In this document: positions 2,431 through 26,394 of the stretch, piece after piece | How the letters are laid out: the number at the start of each line of letters is the position of its first letter | Numbering within the stretch: the first letter of the stretch is position 1 | Source: Myxococcus stipitatus | Lineage (GTDB): Bacteria > Myxococcota > Myxococcia > Myxococcales > Myxococcaceae | Direction: 5' to 3' | Assembly (NCBI RefSeq): GCF_038561935.1 | Contig: NZ_CP102770.1 | Span: 7,316,001 to 7,380,000, forward strand | DNA length: 64,000 nt | Notes under the pieces: model-generated | What the model was told of the DNA's origin: nothing | Database searches by the model: none | Seen by the model: the letters and a program-made list of their open reading frames with translations, nothing else | Translations under genes and position numbers: made by a program

Positions 2431-3414
2431 ATGGCCTCCGAGCCCTCCTTGACGCGCATCGCGGTGCTGGCCCTGGATGGATGTGTCGCGTCCAGCGTCA
2501 TGGGTCCCCTGGACGTGTTCGCCATGGCGAACCTCCTGAGCCAGGAGCAGGGCCAGGAGGCGCCCTTCGCCGCGGAGCTCGTGTCGCCGCGCCCCGGCCC
2601 CGCCCGGAGCTTCCATGGCCTGATGCTCGCGGCGGCGCGTGTCCCGGACGCCTCCGAGCGCTTCGACGTCGTCCTCGTTCCCGCGGCCGTGGGCAACGTG
2701 GAGGGCCTCGTCGCCGAACAGGCCGCCGCGACCTGGCTTCAGGGGCAGCATGAGCGCGGCGCGAAGCTCGCGGCCGTCTGCGCTGGCGTCTTCCTGCTCG
2801 CGGAGACAGGGCTCCTGGAGGGACGAGAGGCCACCACGCACTGGGGACTCGCCCAGCGCTTCGCGGCGCGCTACCCCCGCGTGTCGCTCAAGCCCGAGCT
2901 GCTCCTGGTGGACCTCGGTGATGTGCTCACCGCGGGCGGCGTCACCGCGTATCTCGACCTCTCGCTCCACCTGGTCTCGAAGCTGGCGTCACCCGAGCTG
3001 GCGGCGCTCTGCGCGAAGATGCTCCTGGTGGAGCCGGGCCGCAGGTTCCAGGCCCCCTACGCGGTGCATGCCGCGCCCCGAGACCATGGCGACTCCGCCG
3101 TGCTGCGCGCACAGGAATGGCTGGAGGCACACCTGCACGGGCCCGTGACGCTGACCGGCGCGGCCAGTGCCGCGAGCCTGGGGGAACGGACCCTCTTGCG
3201 CAGGTTCCGCAAGGCCACGGGCGACACACCACTCGACTACGTGCAGCGGCTGCGCATCGAGGCCGCGCGACGACTGCTCGAGACCACGCCACGCACCGTG
3301 GAGGACATCTCCCTGGCCGTGGGCTACGCGGACACCACCGCGTTCCGCCGCCGATTCAAGGCGCGCACCGGACTGACGCCCGATGCCTACCGTCGACGCT
3401 TCGCGCTGCGCTGA
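2431..3414 (+). CDS. GlxA family transcriptional regulator (DJ-1/PfpI + AraC HTH)
   Basis: A 327-residue regulator. Residues about 5-185 form a DJ-1/PfpI-like domain with the nucleophile-elbow cysteine in AAVCAGVFLLAETG followed by THW. Residues about 220-320 are an AraC-type pair of helix-turn-helix motifs (SLGERTLLRRFRKATG, then VEDISLAVGYADTTAFRRRFK, then GLTPDAYRRRF). Such proteins sense a small molecule and usually activate a nearby gene. The divergent isochorismatase-like hydrolase, about 110 bases away, is the natural target, but this is inference. The ATG at 2431 gives a full-length N-terminal beta strand. Confidence 0.93.
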   Translation: MASEPSLTRIAVLALDGCVASSVMGPLDVFAMANLLSQEQGQEAPFAAELVSPRPGPARSFHGLMLAAARVPDASERFDVVLVPAAVGNVEGLVAEQAAATWLQGQHERGAKLAAVCAGVFLLAETGLLEGREATTHWGLAQRFAARYPRVSLKPELLLVDLGDVLTAGGVTAYLDLSLHLVSKLASPELAALCAKMLLVEPGRRFQAPYAVHAAPRDHGDSAVLRAQEWLEAHLHGPVTLTGAASAASLGERTLLRRFRKATGDTPLDYVQRLRIEAARRLLETTPRTVEDISLAVGYADTTAFRRRFKARTGLTPDAYRRRFALR

Positions 3415-3422
3415 AAGACACC

Positions 3423-4505
3423 TCACCTGCAATAGCGCAAGCCGTCCTGGGGCAAGGTGCAGGACTGCCGGAGCTCGACGCAATCCCTGTCCGAGGCACA
3501 GAGCCTCCGGCACCGGTTCTCGATACAAGCCTGAGGCGTCGATGGGTTCTCGCAGGCGCCTGGCCCGAGCTCGTCCTCGTCGCAGCGCTCCCCCGCTTCC
3601 AGCCAGCCCTTCCCGAGGATGAACGGAATGGGACGGCTGGCCGCGACCAGCGTCGGCCCATCCACGAGCTGCACGACGAGATAGAGCGGCCTGTCCTGCG
3701 GAAGACTCGCTGAGGCCTGCCCCCAGGTCCCCTCCAAGATTTCAACCCCATCCCCGAGGCACACCACGGGCACCGAGGAAGCGGGGCGACTCGCCCCCCA
3801 GATGGCGAACTCTCGAAGGTCCTGGCTGTGGGTGGGGGGCGCCCGGAGAATCAGGATGATGGCGTCCCGCGAGAGGCCCTTCCACGACACGGAGAAGTCC
3901 GTCGCGGACTCGAACTGCTGGCCCGCGCGCGGGGAGACGACCTCGACACTTCCCTCGGAGTCCAAGCCGATGATGGGCGGATGCTCGGTCGGGTTCAGGC
4001 GGCAGAAGCCCTCACTGCATTCGAGGCTCGCGGTTCGAAGCGCGCGGCCATCGAACCGGGGGCACGCGGCGGTCGAACCGCAAGCACCGTTGTTCGGGTA
4101 GCACGTGAAGACCACCGGGTCACAGAAGAAGGTGGGCTCCAGGCACGGCGTCGTCGCTCCACACTCCACCGGCCGACACGCGTTCGCGACGCACTCCTCC
4201 CGCGCCGCGCACTGGTCGCTCTGACAAGGGCCGCAATATCCCCCGTCGCCATGAGGCAGACAGGGCTGGCCTCTCGCGCAGGTGTTGGCGCCCACCACCT
4301 CGGGACGACACGCGACGGCACAGCGCTCAGTCACCTCGGGACAGTCACCGTCATCACACTCCGCTTCCCTCACGCAGACCTCGAGCCCTTCTCGACAGAG
4401 CTCGCATGGCGCCAAGGGGGGGCCGCCGGCGCAGGACGCTGCATGGACCCACAGCATCAGCGCGACGAGGCCGGACGCGAGTGCGGCGCCATGGGCAGAG
4501 CGCAT
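3423..4505 (-). CDS. Secreted cysteine-rich protein
   Basis: 360 residues starting at the ATG at 4505, which overlaps the TGA of the upstream protease gene by one base (TGATG), so the two are probably translationally coupled. The N-terminus is a signal peptide (MRSAHGAALASGLVALMLW, then an HAASCAGG site that may be a lipobox). Residues about 25-170 are packed with cysteines in CxxC and EGF-like spacings (CELCREGLEVCV, CGPCQSDQC, CDPVVFTCYPN). A central region (about 185-300) looks like an Ig-type fold, and a further cysteine cluster closes the protein. Myxobacteria have many such surface proteins. No enzymatic motif is visible. Last gene of the three-gene operon 6518-3423. Confidence 0.82.
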   Translation of the reverse strand: MRSAHGAALASGLVALMLWVHAASCAGGPPLAPCELCREGLEVCVREAECDDGDCPEVTERCAVACRPEVVGANTCARGQPCLPHGDGGYCGPCQSDQCAAREECVANACRPVECGATTPCLEPTFFCDPVVFTCYPNNGACGSTAACPRFDGRALRTASLECSEGFCRLNPTEHPPIIGLDSEGSVEVVSPRAGQQFESATDFSVSWKGLSRDAIILILRAPPTHSQDLREFAIWGASRPASSVPVVCLGDGVEILEGTWGQASASLPQDRPLYLVVQLVDGPTLVAASRPIPFILGKGWLEAGERCDEDELGPGACENPSTPQACIENRCRRLCASDRDCVELRQSCTLPQDGLRYCR

Positions 4506-5947
4506 CAGTAGGCCGCCCCCACGGCCGTCCCCAGCTGCCACGAGAGGGCATCGGCTCGCGTGTCGAGATTCGCCCCGACTCCCGTGTAGCGGTGTCGCGG
4601 GCGAACCTCCCATCCTCGCGCCAGGCGGAGCTCCAGCAAGAACGACACGGGCAAGGAGTCCTTCGGGCTCAGGTAGACGCGAAGACTGCCCGCGAGCGAC
4701 GGCTCCCATTGCTGAGCGGACGATTCCCAGAGCGAGTAGTTCGCGCTCCAGAGTCGAGCACTGAAACCCAAGGCGGGTCTGTACCGGCTGAGCTGAAAGA
4801 GGCGCATCTCCAGCTCCGGCTCGAAGTAGAAGCCCTTGGCCCAGAGGTCCTTCTCCCAGAACTCGCCCTCGTCGGGCCCGCTGAGCGTCTCCCGCGCCTT
4901 CGACCACCGGTACCCGAGCGAGAACCGAAGCCCGAACCCGACGGTCCGCTTCACGGGGGACAGCCACCCCAGCTCCTGCGTCACACTCGCGCGCACCGCT
5001 TGCGATGTGGAGCTCCATCCCTCGTTGACCTCGGCTTGCCAGGCCAGCTCGAAGGAGCGGTCGTTCATGGACCGCAGCACCATCGCCTGTTTGTCCTCCG
5101 CGAAGACATCCAACGACAGGGCTTGAGAGAGCTGCGGTTTGTCGAAGCGAGGCCAGTCTCCGAAGCCAAGGTGCGCGATGGCCTCCGGCTGAGCCAACGC
5201 CAGACGTTGCCCCTCGAAGGCCACGGCCCAGGACACACTCGAGCCCGCGAGGCCCGCGTTGTGGACACCGACAACCTTCATCGCGCGCTCAGGCAACGTC
5301 ACCGCCGCCCCGCTCGCGCCTGGGGCCGCGGGAGAGAAGTACTGAATCAGGGGGACATGACTCGCGATGGAGCCTCGGGCGAGCTGCGTGAGCTGCTCCG
5401 GCGTCTTTCCTTGCCCCGCGACTCCGTAGAACGAGACCAGGTACTGCGCGAGCTTCTCCGCCACGGGCTTGCCCATGAGAAACCCGGGGCTGTTCGCGCA
5501 GACACTCCCTTCGGAGAAGCCATGGACATAGACGGCGAGGGTCCGCCCCTTCGGCCACCCGTTGAAGTCCACCTCCCCCGCGGACTCCTGCTGGAGTGCC
5601 ACCGCGTCACCGGGCGGAATCTCCAGCGCCGCGAGGTCATATCGCGGCCACACGAGGACGGGGGTTCCGGAGGTGATGGTCCAGCGGAGCGTCTTCAGTG
5701 GATTGGCCGCGTCCGAGCAGTCCACGCTGGAGATCGCCGCGCTCGACTTGCGATGGAGGACGTGGAGCGCGGTGAGCAGGAGGAATCGCCCTTGTCGTCC
5801 CGCGCGCCAGTCCTTCACGACGAAGGCGCTTCCGCTGGACGCGGGCATGGCATCCACCAGGAACGTCGGGACCTCCGCGGCCCGAGCCCCACCTCCCAGG
5901 AGGAGGCCCAGCAGGAGCGCGCTACGGGGCACACGAGAGATTCGCAT
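4505..5947 (-). CDS. Trypsin-like serine peptidase fused to a probable outer-membrane beta-barrel
   Basis: A 480-residue exported protein. I start it at the ATG at 5947 because this gives a clean signal peptide (MRISRVPRSALLLGLLLGGG, cleaved near ARAAE). The longer ATG at 5968 would add charged residues in front. Residues about 25-260 are a chymotrypsin-fold domain with His in LLTALHVL, Asp in RYDLAALEI and Ser in PGASGAAV. The last 190 residues are alternating amphipathic strands (VGFGLRFSLGYRW, FYFEPELEMRLF, LGFSARLWS, SLRVYLSP, FLLELRLARGW) and end in an aromatic residue (GAAY). That is what an outer-membrane barrel looks like. It overlaps the upstream gene by 26 bases. The protease call is good; the barrel is inference. 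Confidence 0.8.
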   Translation of the reverse strand: MRISRVPRSALLLGLLLGGGARAAEVPTFLVDAMPASSGSAFVVKDWRAGRQGRFLLLTALHVLHRKSSAAISSVDCSDAANPLKTLRWTITSGTPVLVWPRYDLAALEIPPGDAVALQQESAGEVDFNGWPKGRTLAVYVHGFSEGSVCANSPGFLMGKPVAEKLAQYLVSFYGVAGQGKTPEQLTQLARGSIASHVPLIQYFSPAAPGASGAAVTLPERAMKVVGVHNAGLAGSSVSWAVAFEGQRLALAQPEAIAHLGFGDWPRFDKPQLSQALSLDVFAEDKQAMVLRSMNDRSFELAWQAEVNEGWSSTSQAVRASVTQELGWLSPVKRTVGFGLRFSLGYRWSKARETLSGPDEGEFWEKDLWAKGFYFEPELEMRLFQLSRYRPALGFSARLWSANYSLWESSAQQWEPSLAGSLRVYLSPKDSLPVSFLLELRLARGWEVRPRHRYTGVGANLDTRADALSWQLGTAVGAAY

Positions 5948-8023: not shown

Positions 8024-8075
8024 CTGACGTGTCAGCCGGAACATTGACGTGTCAACGCATTCCCTGACACGTCAA
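8024..8075. promoter_or_regulatory. Three phased TTGAC-NN-GTCAA palindromes
   Basis: Three 12-bp palindromes lie at 8024-8035 (CTGACGTGTCAG), 8044-8055 (TTGACGTGTCAA) and 8064-8075 (CTGACACGTCAA), exactly 20 bp apart, so they sit on the same helix face. They lie between divergent genes starting at 7979 and 8153, about 45 bases upstream of the TPR gene and 78 bases upstream of the amidohydrolase gene. This looks like a cooperative operator for an unidentified dimeric regulator. The same motif occurs at 16398 and at 25981-26013. Confidence 0.6.
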
Positions 8076-8152
8076 TCCGTGGCTTGTTGCGATTTCGCAC
8101 CCGCCGTCAGTCCATCCGTGTATAGGACTGGAACACCTCTCATCGGAGCACC

Positions 8153-10171
8153 ATGAACAGACATCCTCGGCGGGAGCGCTCTGCTCCCAGGCCTCTCCTT
8201 TCGCGTTCCTGGGTCTGCACCGCGTCCTTGGCCTTCCTGGCCTCGTGCGCGACGACGGGGGGTTCGATGGCGAAGCCACCCGACAGCGACAAGACCAAGA
8301 CCCTCTTCCTCGGAAAGGTCCTCACCATGGACGACAACATGTCCGTCGCCGAGGCCGTCCTGGTGGATGAGCGGGGCCACATCCTCGAGGTAGGAACCGA
8401 GAAGGCGGTCCGTGATGGACTCGGCTCGGGCGTCCAGGTCATCCAGCTCGAGGCGGGCCAGGTGCTGATGCCGGGCTTCATCGACTCCCACCTGCACCTG
8501 CTGCCCACCCTCCTCCAGAGCGTCCTCGAGTCACACAACCTGGCGCCCTGTCTGCCCGGTCCCTACCGCATCCCCACCGCCACGGCCTGCGAGTCGCGCG
8601 CGGACGTGCTGAGCACGCTGGCATCCATCCAGCTGTCCCCCGAGGCCCCGAAGGACGAGTTCGTCCTGGGCATGAACTTGGACCCGTCACGCCAGGTGTT
8701 CGACCCCCTCAAGTGCGGCATCACCGCGAAGGAGGCCAAGAGCGCCGGGGACTTCATGGACAATCCGAAGTTCTACATCGAGCGCTGCGTGAGCAAGGAC
8801 CGCCCGGTGCTCATCCTCGACCAGTCCGGCCACCTGGCCTACGTCAACCAGCGGGCCATCGACGTCGTCTGCGCGGGACAGGCGCAGTGTCCCCCTGCCT
8901 CCGTCGCACAAGGTGGCGGCGAGTGGGCGCCCAACAACGCGGCCCCCTTCACCGGCCTGCTCAAGGAGGCCTCGGGCTACAACCCCTTCATGACGGCGCT
9001 GCAGAGCAGCCTGCCGCTGGCCCAGCTCAAGTCACATCCCAAGAAACTCCTGGCGGCCTATGAGAAGGAGATCAAGCCCGGCATCCAGGCGATGCGTGAC
9101 GCGGGACTCACGACCCTCGCGGATGGCGGCCTCGTGGGCCTGTCTCAGCTCCAGGCGGTGCAGTTCCTGGCGGAGCAGGAGCACTTCCCGATGCGCGTCA
9201 CGGGTGTCGTGACCTACGACAGCGCGAAGCACGACGGCATCCCTCCCACGAGCCCCGCGTGCAACCCGCGCGAGGACCCGAACTGCAAGCTGCCCAAGTG
9301 GCTGGGCGCCGGGGGACTCAAGCTCTGGGTGGATGGCTCGACGCAGGGCTGCACCGCGAAGCTCGCGGCCCCGTACTCGTACTCGAAGACGGGCCACTGC
9401 TCGGACGCGGGCGAGGGCCGGGCCGACTTCGCGAACACCCAGGCCATCGTCGACGCGCTGAGCGAGCAGTGGAAGACGGGCGCCTGGCGCTTCCAGCTCC
9501 ACGCCAACGGCAACGACGCGAACCAGTGGGCCATCGACGCCTTCGCGCAGCTCCAGCAGCAGGCCGTGAACACGCACCCCGTGCTGTTCATCCACAACAC
9601 GGTGGGCACCGAGCAGCTGTCCAAGAACCTCGGCGACCTCATCAAGGGGAACTACCTCGCGCCGAACGGCCAGAAGACCCCCACCGTCAAGGCACACGTG
9701 ACGCACCTCATCGGCCATGTGGCGTACTGGGGCCACGCGTTCAGGGGCATGCTCGGCGAAGCGGCCGCGAACAACCTGGACCCCGTGGGCTTCGACCGCG
9801 ACCAGGGCATCCCGTTCTCATTCCACAGCGACTCGATGGTGACGCCACCTCGCCCGCTCTGGTTCGTCGAGCAGGCCGTCACGCGCCGCACCTGGGCCTA
9901 TCCCTCGCTCCAGGAGAGCGGCACCCTCGGCCTGGAGAAACACGCGGCCACGGTCGAGGAGGCCCTGCGCGCCATCACCATCGAGCCCGCCCGGCAGCAT
10001 GAGCTCGACGCGTGGCTGGGCAGCATCGAGGAGGGCAAGGTCGCCGACTTCGTCGTGCTCGGCGACAACCCCCTCGACTACGGCCCGAAGAAGAAGGACC
10101 CCACCCTGATTCACAAGATTCCCGTGGTGGAGACCTATCTGAACGGCAAGCCCACCTCGAAGCAGCCCTGA
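8153..10171 (+). CDS. Amidohydrolase family lipoprotein (Amidohydro_3/YtcJ-like)
   Basis: A 672-residue exported metal-dependent hydrolase. The N-terminus has a positively charged region, a short hydrophobic stretch and a lipobox-like SLAFLASC near residue 31. The amidohydrolase barrel follows: PGFIDSHLHL (metal-binding HxH) near residue 112, KLWVDGSTQG near 390, FQLHANGNDANQWAIDAF near 450 and FSFHSDS near 560. The usual closing strands are present (EEGKVADFVVLGDNPLD). Length is somewhat above the usual 540-600 for YtcJ-like enzymes. It starts at an ATG with GGAG four bases upstream. The substrate is unknown. It is transcribed divergently from the TPR gene across the phased palindromes. Confidence 0.9.
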   Translation: MNRHPRRERSAPRPLLSRSWVCTASLAFLASCATTGGSMAKPPDSDKTKTLFLGKVLTMDDNMSVAEAVLVDERGHILEVGTEKAVRDGLGSGVQVIQLEAGQVLMPGFIDSHLHLLPTLLQSVLESHNLAPCLPGPYRIPTATACESRADVLSTLASIQLSPEAPKDEFVLGMNLDPSRQVFDPLKCGITAKEAKSAGDFMDNPKFYIERCVSKDRPVLILDQSGHLAYVNQRAIDVVCAGQAQCPPASVAQGGGEWAPNNAAPFTGLLKEASGYNPFMTALQSSLPLAQLKSHPKKLLAAYEKEIKPGIQAMRDAGLTTLADGGLVGLSQLQAVQFLAEQEHFPMRVTGVVTYDSAKHDGIPPTSPACNPREDPNCKLPKWLGAGGLKLWVDGSTQGCTAKLAAPYSYSKTGHCSDAGEGRADFANTQAIVDALSEQWKTGAWRFQLHANGNDANQWAIDAFAQLQQQAVNTHPVLFIHNTVGTEQLSKNLGDLIKGNYLAPNGQKTPTVKAHVTHLIGHVAYWGHAFRGMLGEAAANNLDPVGFDRDQGIPFSFHSDSMVTPPRPLWFVEQAVTRRTWAYPSLQESGTLGLEKHAATVEEALRAITIEPARQHELDAWLGSIEEGKVADFVVLGDNPLDYGPKKKDPTLIHKIPVVETYLNGKPTSKQP

Positions 10172-16134: not shown

Positions 16135-16562
16135 GCCGGCGCGATATGCGGCGCCTCGCAAAACCAATCAACCCAGGTCTTTCTGGCATTGTTGCAGGCT
16201 GCATCAACGATTGCGGGCGACGACATGGACAGGCATCCGCCCCGGTCGCGGGGCATGCAACGCGATGCAAGGGAATGCTCGTAGACCGGCGTCATGCGCG
16301 CTGAAGCGGCGCCACTCGGACGGAGAAGGAAGCCACGCGGGAGTGCTCCGTCAGGAGTATCAGCGGGTGTCCTCCAGGAGAAGGGGCCCTGTCTGTCTTG
16401 ACACGTCACGGGCCGGACACCGGGCTGGTACAGGAGCGCGGTGTGGGCTGCGGGCCATGCGATGGCGATTGTGTTCCAGCGACCAGTCTGGCCCCGCCTT
16501 CCCTCTCGCGCCTGTTCGCGTGCACAATCCAGACGTCCACCCACCCTCCCAAGGAGTACCCC
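16135..16562. other. 428-bp intergenic region
   Basis: It lies between the divergent ThDP enzyme and GNAT genes and should hold both promoters. Visible elements are the TTGAC-type palindrome at 16398-16409, a repeated ATGCAA pair near 16256-16270, and AAGGAG at 16551-16556 in front of the GNAT frame. I see no convincing gene. The in-frame ATG at 16398 falls inside the palindrome. Confidence 0.5.
16398..16409. promoter_or_regulatory. Single TTGAC-NN-GTCAC palindrome
   Basis: TTGACACGTCAC matches the motif seen three times at 8024-8075 and twice at 25981-26013. It also contains a perfect TTGACA that could serve as a -35 box for the GNAT gene. It lies about 155 bases upstream of the proposed GNAT start. 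Confidence 0.4.
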
Positions 16563-25980: not shown

Positions 25981-26034
25981 GTGACGCGTCAACCCGCCAG
26001 ATTGACACGTCAAGCTCGACAGTCCGTGACACGA
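25981..26034. promoter_or_regulatory. Two TTGAC-NN-GTCAA palindromes plus a half site
   Basis: GTGACGCGTCAA at 25981-25992 and TTGACACGTCAA at 26002-26013 are 21 bp apart. A half site (GTGACACG) starts at 26026. The position is between the divergent broken gene (start 25924) and the small secreted protein gene (start 26110). The motif is the same as at 8024-8075, so both loci may share a regulator. Confidence 0.55.
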
Positions 26035-26109
26035 AGGCGTGTCCGCGCCCCTCGGAGCAGTCGCTGTCACCGCCATGGCATCTGACTTGCTGTCATCTCG
26101 AGACCGCCC

Positions 26110-26394
26110 ATGGACAAGACGCTCATCACCTCCTGCATCCTGGCCCTGGTGTCAGGCACCCCTGCCCTGGCCGCCGAGCCCACGCCCTCGTTCGAGACCC
26201 GAGCGAAGGAGCACTGCCAGAAGTCTCTCTCGATTCCCTCCTGCAACCAGGTGAAGCCGCCCGGCCCTTTCATCAAACGGTGTGTCGAGGACGCCGTGTT
26301 GACCGGGAGCTTCGAGTTCGTGGAGACCGCTCGGAAAGACTATCTGCGCGCGTGCCAGCGACTGACTCCGAAGCCGGCACCGTCCAAGCCCTGA
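26110..26394 (+). CDS. Small secreted protein of unknown function
   Basis: 94 residues with a signal peptide (MDKTLITSCILALVSGTPAL, cleaved near AAEP). The mature part has three spaced cysteines plus one more (EHCQKS, SCNQV, RCVEDAV, RACQRL) and helical character. No family recognised. It sits downstream of the palindromes at 25981-26034 and is convergent with the amidinotransferase gene, whose stop is seven bases away. Confidence 0.7.
   Translation: MDKTLITSCILALVSGTPALAAEPTPSFETRAKEHCQKSLSIPSCNQVKPPGPFIKRCVEDAVLTGSFEFVETARKDYLRACQRLTPKPAPSKP

What the first reader, a model, noticed from the sequence alone, without database searches (positions are those of the whole stretch)
8024..8075. Three operator-like palindromes phased exactly 20 bp apart
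TTGAC-NN-GTCAA type sites recur at 8024, 8044 and 8064. The precise period of two helical turns implies cooperative binding. The same motif is found at 16398 and at 25981/26002, each time between genes, which suggests one regulon.
Basis: seen in the sequence. Interest (0 to 1): 0.6.

Follow-up and report, generated by a model that had tools for sequence, protein, structure and literature searches.

The report
Enhancer sites of a Myxococcus regulon
The three evenly spaced DNA palindromes are real and belong to a set of enhancer sites that most likely lets one unstudied activator protein switch on many genes in Myxococcus and related bacteria; the reported copy stands, unusually, in front of a different type of promoter.

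Summary
TGACRYGTCA lies at 8025, 8045 and 8065 (period 20), at 16399, and at 25982/26003 (period 21): 6 found, 0.21 expected. Tandem copies 20-22 bp apart mark a real regulon: 9 pair matches in this genome, 0 for the backward pattern. None of 96 tandem groups lies inside a well-scored called gene.

The suggested regulator types (CRP/FNR, TetR) are not supported. In 73 of 96 groups a sigma54 -24/-12 promoter lies nearby, on one helical face (period 11). The sites are therefore most likely enhancers of a sigma54 enhancer-binding protein. The best candidate is a 548-aa protein outside the window (G000:C1:8484846-8486435): its gene is followed by motif copies and a sigma54 promoter in 27 of 27 genomes of the genus.

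Two qualifications. The single site at 16399 is at chance level. The reported triple has no sigma54 promoter; with its amidohydrolase gene it is conserved in 15 of 16 genomes, before a sigmaA-like -10 with no visible -35. It most likely activates there from class-I-like positions, which would be unusual for such a protein. Nothing was tested at the bench.

The parts
8025..8034 (.). site 1 of the triple, TGACGTGTCA
   Evidence: conserved upstream of homologs of the same gene
8045..8054 (.). site 2 of the triple, TGACGTGTCA
8065..8074 (.). site 3 of the triple, TGACACGTCA
8117..8126 (+). sigmaA-like extended -10, TGTG-TATAGG, 46 bp after site 3; no -35 seen by eye; no sigma54 element in this promoter
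   Evidence: assignment as a -10 is inference
8153..10171 (+). amidohydrolase gene (Amidohydro_3, 672 aa), the likely target of the triple
25982..25991 (.). site 1 of a pair, TGACGCGTCA
26003..26012 (.). site 2 of the pair, TGACACGTCA, 21 bp on
26076..26091 (+). sigma54 -24/-12 promoter TGGCATCTGACTTGCT, 63 bp after site 2
   Evidence: score 15.6; kept with the same distance in G014 and, with letter changes, G013 and G008
26110..26394 (+). likely target gene of the pair, 94 aa, signal-peptide-like start (by eye), weak C8 match below the Pfam cut-off
16399..16408 (.). single core TGACACGTCA; not supported as part of the regulon

Best explanation
The tandem palindromes are upstream activating sequences of one sigma54 enhancer-binding protein (bEBP) regulon of Myxococcus and related genera. 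Dimers bind sites about two helical turns apart, assemble into the AAA+ hexamer and, by short looping, open sigma54-RNA polymerase at a -24/-12 promoter, mostly 39-96 bp further on and on one helical face. The regulator is most likely the 548-aa bEBP at G000:C1:8484846-8486435 (N-terminal domain of unknown kind, Sigma54_activat AAA+ domain with GAYTGA, two Fis-type HTH stretches). At 25982-26091 this is the ordinary arrangement. At 8025-8074 the same array precedes a sigmaA-like promoter, and the most likely action is direct class-I-like activation of the amidohydrolase gene. Shown from sequence: sites, spacing, placement, sigma54 elements, phasing, conservation, linkage to the bEBP gene. Inferred: that this protein binds the sites, that it activates, and its mode at the triple.
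For: sigma54 elements: 73 of 96 tandem groups exceed the 95% point and 60 of 96 the 99% point of 4,356 control windows; about 9 and 2 are expected when the better of two sides is taken; 70 of 96 exceed the 95% point (10.05) of 393 gene-upstream windows. Phasing: 39 distances under 100 bp from 36 target clusters, resultant 0.70 at period 11.0, 0 of 20,000 uniform simulations. Regulator: among 50 loci covering 52 of 60 PF00158 matches, only L187 has a near-consensus pair (23.9, next 9.8). In 27 of 27 genus genomes at least two motif copies with 0-1 mismatch and a sigma54 element of score 12.4-13.7 follow the bEBP gene. MscS gene: directly behind the bEBP in five genomes, unlinked here but with its own pair and sigma54 element. 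Single-bEBP genomes G001, G015 and G024 still have 9, 4 and 5 pairs.
Against: 23 of 96 groups lack a sigma54 element at the 95% point, 9 of them the reported amidohydrolase type. G029 has pairs but none near its bEBP fragment; G034 and eight others have the bEBP without perfect pairs. Co-occurrence (56 of 56 genomes with pairs have the bEBP; 0 of 31 without it have pairs) is weak, since a control bEBP has nearly the same distribution in the 61-genome set. Paralogs (own: 63%, L188) could bind some sites. Binding was not tested.
Confidence: 0.72

Rival explanations
1. A TetR-family repressor (BetI-like) binds the palindromes and represses nearby promoters.
For: BetI1 of Ruegeria pomeroyi protects ATTGACG*CGTCAAT, the same core letters (passages of PMC12442346).
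Against: No TetR gene among 30 flanking proteins scanned; most groups sit upstream of, not over, sigma54 promoters and in helical phase with them; linkage to a bEBP gene.
Confidence: 0.08
2. The sites are bEBP enhancers, but the regulator is another of the 53 strong PF00158 proteins, for example the 63% paralog L188, or several paralogs share the motif.
For: One to seven family members per genome; 8 of 60 PF00158 matches were not scanned; L154 lies near a single site; genus-wide distribution is common to other bEBPs.
Against: Only L187 of the loci scanned carries the pair; linkage in 27 of 27 genomes; three genomes with a single family member at E<=1e-80 still have pairs.
Confidence: 0.17
3. 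At the reported triple the same protein represses, or merely competes at, the amidohydrolase promoter instead of activating it.
For: No sigma54 element in any of 16 homologous upstream regions (best 8.0); some bEBP-family proteins such as TyrR and FleQ repress sigma70 promoters (recalled).
Against: The sites lie about 63, 83 and 103 bp upstream of the predicted start, clear of the -10; 46 to 77 bp between site 3 and the -10 is three turns; no -35 visible.
Confidence: 0.35

Closest known systems
Nla28 regulon of Myxococcus xanthus (bEBP, sigma54)
   Same: bEBP with tandem enhancer elements upstream of -24/-12 promoters in the same genus (passages of PMC7910581 and PMC9765219)
   Different: Nla28 half-site is CT(C/G)CG(C/G)AG, many of its sites are intragenic, spacers are loose (up to 25 bp used); here TGACRYGTCA, intergenic, spacing fixed at 20-22 (or 32)
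NtrC/NifA-type enhancers (recalled)
   Same: palindromic tandem dimer sites upstream of sigma54 promoters; dependence on helical face is known for this class (recalled)
   Different: different letters; here sites are close to the promoter, mostly 39-96 bp from the -24 element; PMC7910581 gives 80-150 bp as typical
betI box of Ruegeria pomeroyi BetI1 (TetR family)
   Same: core letters TTGACGCGTCAA
   Different: reported over a -35 box and with no tandem two-turn array in the passages read; no sigma54 promoter there

Membership tests
sigma54 enhancer (UAS) of a bEBP, pair at 25982/26003 | -24/-12 promoter downstream | tested here: met
   score 15.6, 63 bp on, conserved in three relatives
sigma54 enhancer (UAS) of a bEBP, triple at 8025-8074 | -24/-12 promoter downstream | tested here: not met
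   best score -0.4 within 200 bp on either side; none in 16 homologs
sigma54 enhancer (UAS) of a bEBP, tandem groups as a set | tandem palindromes at a fixed helical face to the promoter | tested here: met
   spacing 20-22; resultant 0.70 at period 11.0
bEBP (candidate regulator) | AAA+ sigma54 interaction domain with GAFTGA-type loop | tested here: met
   PF00158 8.2e-60; GAYTGA in the sequence
bEBP (candidate regulator) | Fis-type HTH DNA-binding domain | tested here: met
   PF02954 4.6e-7, two stretches
bEBP (candidate regulator) | binds these sites | not testable with these tools
   linkage only
FHA-type bEBP of Myxococcus | FHA domain at the N-terminus | tested here: inconclusive
   no Pfam match in 29 N-terminal sequences, no convincing PDB sequence match, model pLDDT 47
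CRP/FNR site | half-sites about 10-11 bp apart centre to centre (TGTGA-N6-TCACA, recalled) | tested here: not met
   TGAC and GTCA are 6 bp apart centre to centre in every core (matrix)
TetR/BetI operator | core letters of the palindrome | tested here: met
   TTGACGCGTCAA shared
TetR/BetI operator | linked TetR gene | tested here: not met
   none among 30 flanking proteins scanned; not all flanks were scanned

The most novel reading that the evidence does not exclude
One AAA+ enhancer-binding protein serves two polymerase forms from the same kind of enhancer array: sigma54 at most targets and, with the array at class-I positions (about -63/-83/-103, or three turns further up), sigmaA at the amidohydrolase promoters, so that the reported triple is a bEBP-driven sigmaA promoter kept across the genus.
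Probability: 0.3. Interest if true: 0.75.

Novelty: new member of a known kind. Interest (0 to 1): 0.55.

Why it matters
M. xanthus is said to have 53 bEBP genes (passage of PMC7910581). This gives one such protein a precise enhancer motif and a testable target list (among them trypsin, astacin, lipase, phosphoesterase, LodA, HMG-CoA reductase, guanidino kinase, OmpA and MscS proteins). The conserved exception, the same enhancer before a sigmaA-like promoter, makes it possible to ask directly whether a bEBP can work with both polymerase forms.

Tried and rejected
Site 16399 was checked for a partner, a sigma54 element and conservation, and rejected as chance level. bEBP genes near the sites: a motif scan of the site loci found one (L010, the protein later searched as L154), beside a single site; it served as a control. 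An FHA domain, suspected by eye, was not confirmed. The two structure models were too weak (mean pLDDT 47 and 67), so no fold search was run. Enrichment of lipoproteins among targets is not claimed: my pattern matched only 5 of 72 and gene starts are uncertain. Co-occurrence of bEBP and pairs is reported but judged weak after the control. A PWM recalled from the Barrios consensus was used for sigma54; its weights come from no call. Literature: TGACGCGTCA with 'Myxococcus' gave 0 papers; six 11- or 12-mers gave 10 papers, 9 listed, of which by title only the BetI paper concerned a bacterial regulator and was opened; a 2005 FHA-bEBP paper (recalled) is not held. Searches were seen as listings; PMC12565409, PMC7910581, PMC9765219, PMC12442346 and PMC10849154 as passages only. 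Most subscription papers are not in the library, so an earlier description cannot be excluded.

Full report
Setting. The window is G000:C1:7316001-7380000 of a 10.17-Mb genome. The candidate regulator has 91% identical homologs in M. eversor, M. qinghaiensis and M. llanfairpwll...

Observation. The core TGACRYGTCA is at 8025, 8045, 8065, 16399, 25982 and 26003 (6 found, 0.21 expected, 0 of 100 shuffles reach 6). The looser 12-mer is not enriched.

Which copies matter. The genome has 51 cores (50 listed); about 33 would be expected if 0.21 per 64 kb is scaled up. Of the 50 listed, 23 form 11 tandem groups, none inside a called gene; 27 are single and 19 of these lie in called genes. The tandem is the meaningful element. 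Own-genome spacings are 21 (6), 20 (3), 32, 34 and 41. With 3 mismatches allowed there are 12 matches at 21 bp and 6 at 20 bp, against 0 for the backward control in each.

Relatives. Perfect pairs (gap 9-12) occur in 26 of 61 genomes: 24 of 27 of the genus (own included), 2 of 10 of other genera of the family, 0 of 24 of other families of the order. In the family they occur in 56 of 96 genomes and 8 of 26 genera; control 0 in all rows. I fetched 80 regions around such pairs, a part of those listed. With the own-genome loci this gave 96 tandem groups. None lies inside a called gene of score above 30; 2 of 96 lie in short weak ORFs. Relatives' spacing was pre-selected to 19-22; among adjacent sites in all loci 21 dominates (19: 1, 20: 23, 21: 67, 22: 10).

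sigma54 promoters. With a PWM built from the recalled consensus (the same consensus is quoted in PMC9765219), 73 of 96 groups exceed the 95% point of 4,356 control windows within 200 bp on one side or the other, and 60 of 96 the 99% point; about 9 and 2 are expected. Against 393 gene-upstream windows (95% point 10.05), 70 of 96 exceed it. In the own genome 8 of 11 groups do. For 72 promoters scoring at least 9.5 with a following ORF (L014, a pair with one mismatch, was added by hand), distances from the last site cluster at 39-43, 49-51, 59-63, 70-73 and 81-85 bp; the rest are 77, 94, 96, 108, 109, 130, 141, 145 (4), 148 and 150 (2). Grouped into 36 target clusters, 39 distances under 100 bp give a resultant of 0.70 at period 11.0; 0 of 20,000 uniform simulations reach it.

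Pair at 25982/26003. The sigma54 element TGGCATCTGACTTGCT begins 63 bp after site 2. Pair, element and distance are kept in G014, G013 and G008.

Regulator. Of 60 PF00158 matches 53 score above 170 bits. I scanned 50 loci covering 52 matches; left out were one of 186 bits, one of 62 and six under 36. Only L187 has a near-consensus pair (23.9; next 9.8), directly behind the stop codon of a 548-aa bEBP. In the best-hit loci of 30 genomes: all 27 of the genus have at least two copies with 0-1 mismatch, spaced 21+11, 20+12 or 31-33 bp, then a sigma54 element (12.4-13.7) 60-63 or 72 bp after the last such site; G029 has an element without sites, G034 neither, and G033 (not read by that script) a strong pair with a weak element of 8.4. 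The gene behind is a small protein in most; in G002, G009, G011, G022 and G026 it is an MscS channel. Here the MscS homolog (72-76% identical) is elsewhere and has its own pair (3268999/3269019) and element 82 bp on, which ties motif and regulator together in trans. Co-occurrence agrees: 56 of 56 genomes with pairs have the bEBP family, 0 of 31 without it have pairs, 9 have it without perfect pairs. It is weak evidence, because a control bEBP has homologs of at least 78% identity in the same 27 genomes and in G029, G033 and G034.

The reported triple. It goes with the amidohydrolase gene; homologs behind eight other fetched groups are 58-88% identical. Genes on the other side differ in size and orientation (not compared by homology). 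At E<=1e-150 the gene is found in 16 of 27 genus genomes; 15 of 16 have three or more copies (0-2 mismatches) within 330 bp upstream, L244 none. None has a sigma54 element (best 8.0). A TGTG-TATAGG or TGTG-TATGCT-like -10 lies about 30 nt before the start in most; in L243 it is doubtful. Distance from the last site to the -10: 46 (4 loci), 77 (2), 44-45 (5); L235, L236, L237 and L243 give 63, 31, 35 and 66, depending on which degenerate copy is counted. From 46 to 77 is three turns. I saw no -35. This is the geometry of an activator, but repression is not excluded.

Targets. Pfam names include trypsin, astacin, class 3 lipase, GON, Ig-like repeats, phosphoesterase, LodA, HMG-CoA reductase, ATP:guanido phosphotransferase, MPAB oxygenase, OmpA, MscS, Trp-halogenase-like and, below cut-off, AurF and C8. 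Several start like secreted proteins; no enrichment was established.

Comparison. By anatomy this is a bEBP/sigma54 enhancer regulon with a motif unlike Nla28's. The BetI box shares the letters but not the context. The triple carries the same enhancer but fails the sigma54-promoter test, so it is not filed as a sigma54 enhancer-promoter unit; what it works like is an activator array at a sigmaA-like promoter.

Noticed in passing
L082 (G014:C1:8826100-8832200), sites 3045/3066/3087: One triple lies between two divergent phosphoesterase genes, with a sigma54-like element 42 bp away on one side and 43 bp on the other.
   Followed up: partly
L087 (G018), gene 3275-5212: Another amidohydrolase (Amidohydro_3) stands behind a pair with a clear sigma54 element (15.2, 83 bp), so this enzyme family occurs with both promoter types.
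   Followed up: no
L235, L236, L238-L242, upstream of the amidohydrolase gene: A second, partly degenerate group of two or three copies lies about 90 bp above the proximal one; its target is unknown.
   Followed up: no
G000:C1:10060990-10062588 (L188): A 63% paralog of the bEBP, with a sigma54 element 44 nt behind its stop codon but no clear copy of this motif.
   Followed up: partly
L187, minus strand, behind the bEBP gene: A 118-aa protein follows the bEBP here; homologs follow it in most genus genomes, with a second copy nearby in some (L204, L206-L209, L211, L212). No family search was run on it.
   Followed up: no
L020:4116-5089: A LysR gene ends 44 bp before a pair whose sigma54-like element has CG in place of GG (score 7.5); similar arrangements are in L072 and L079.
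   Followed up: no
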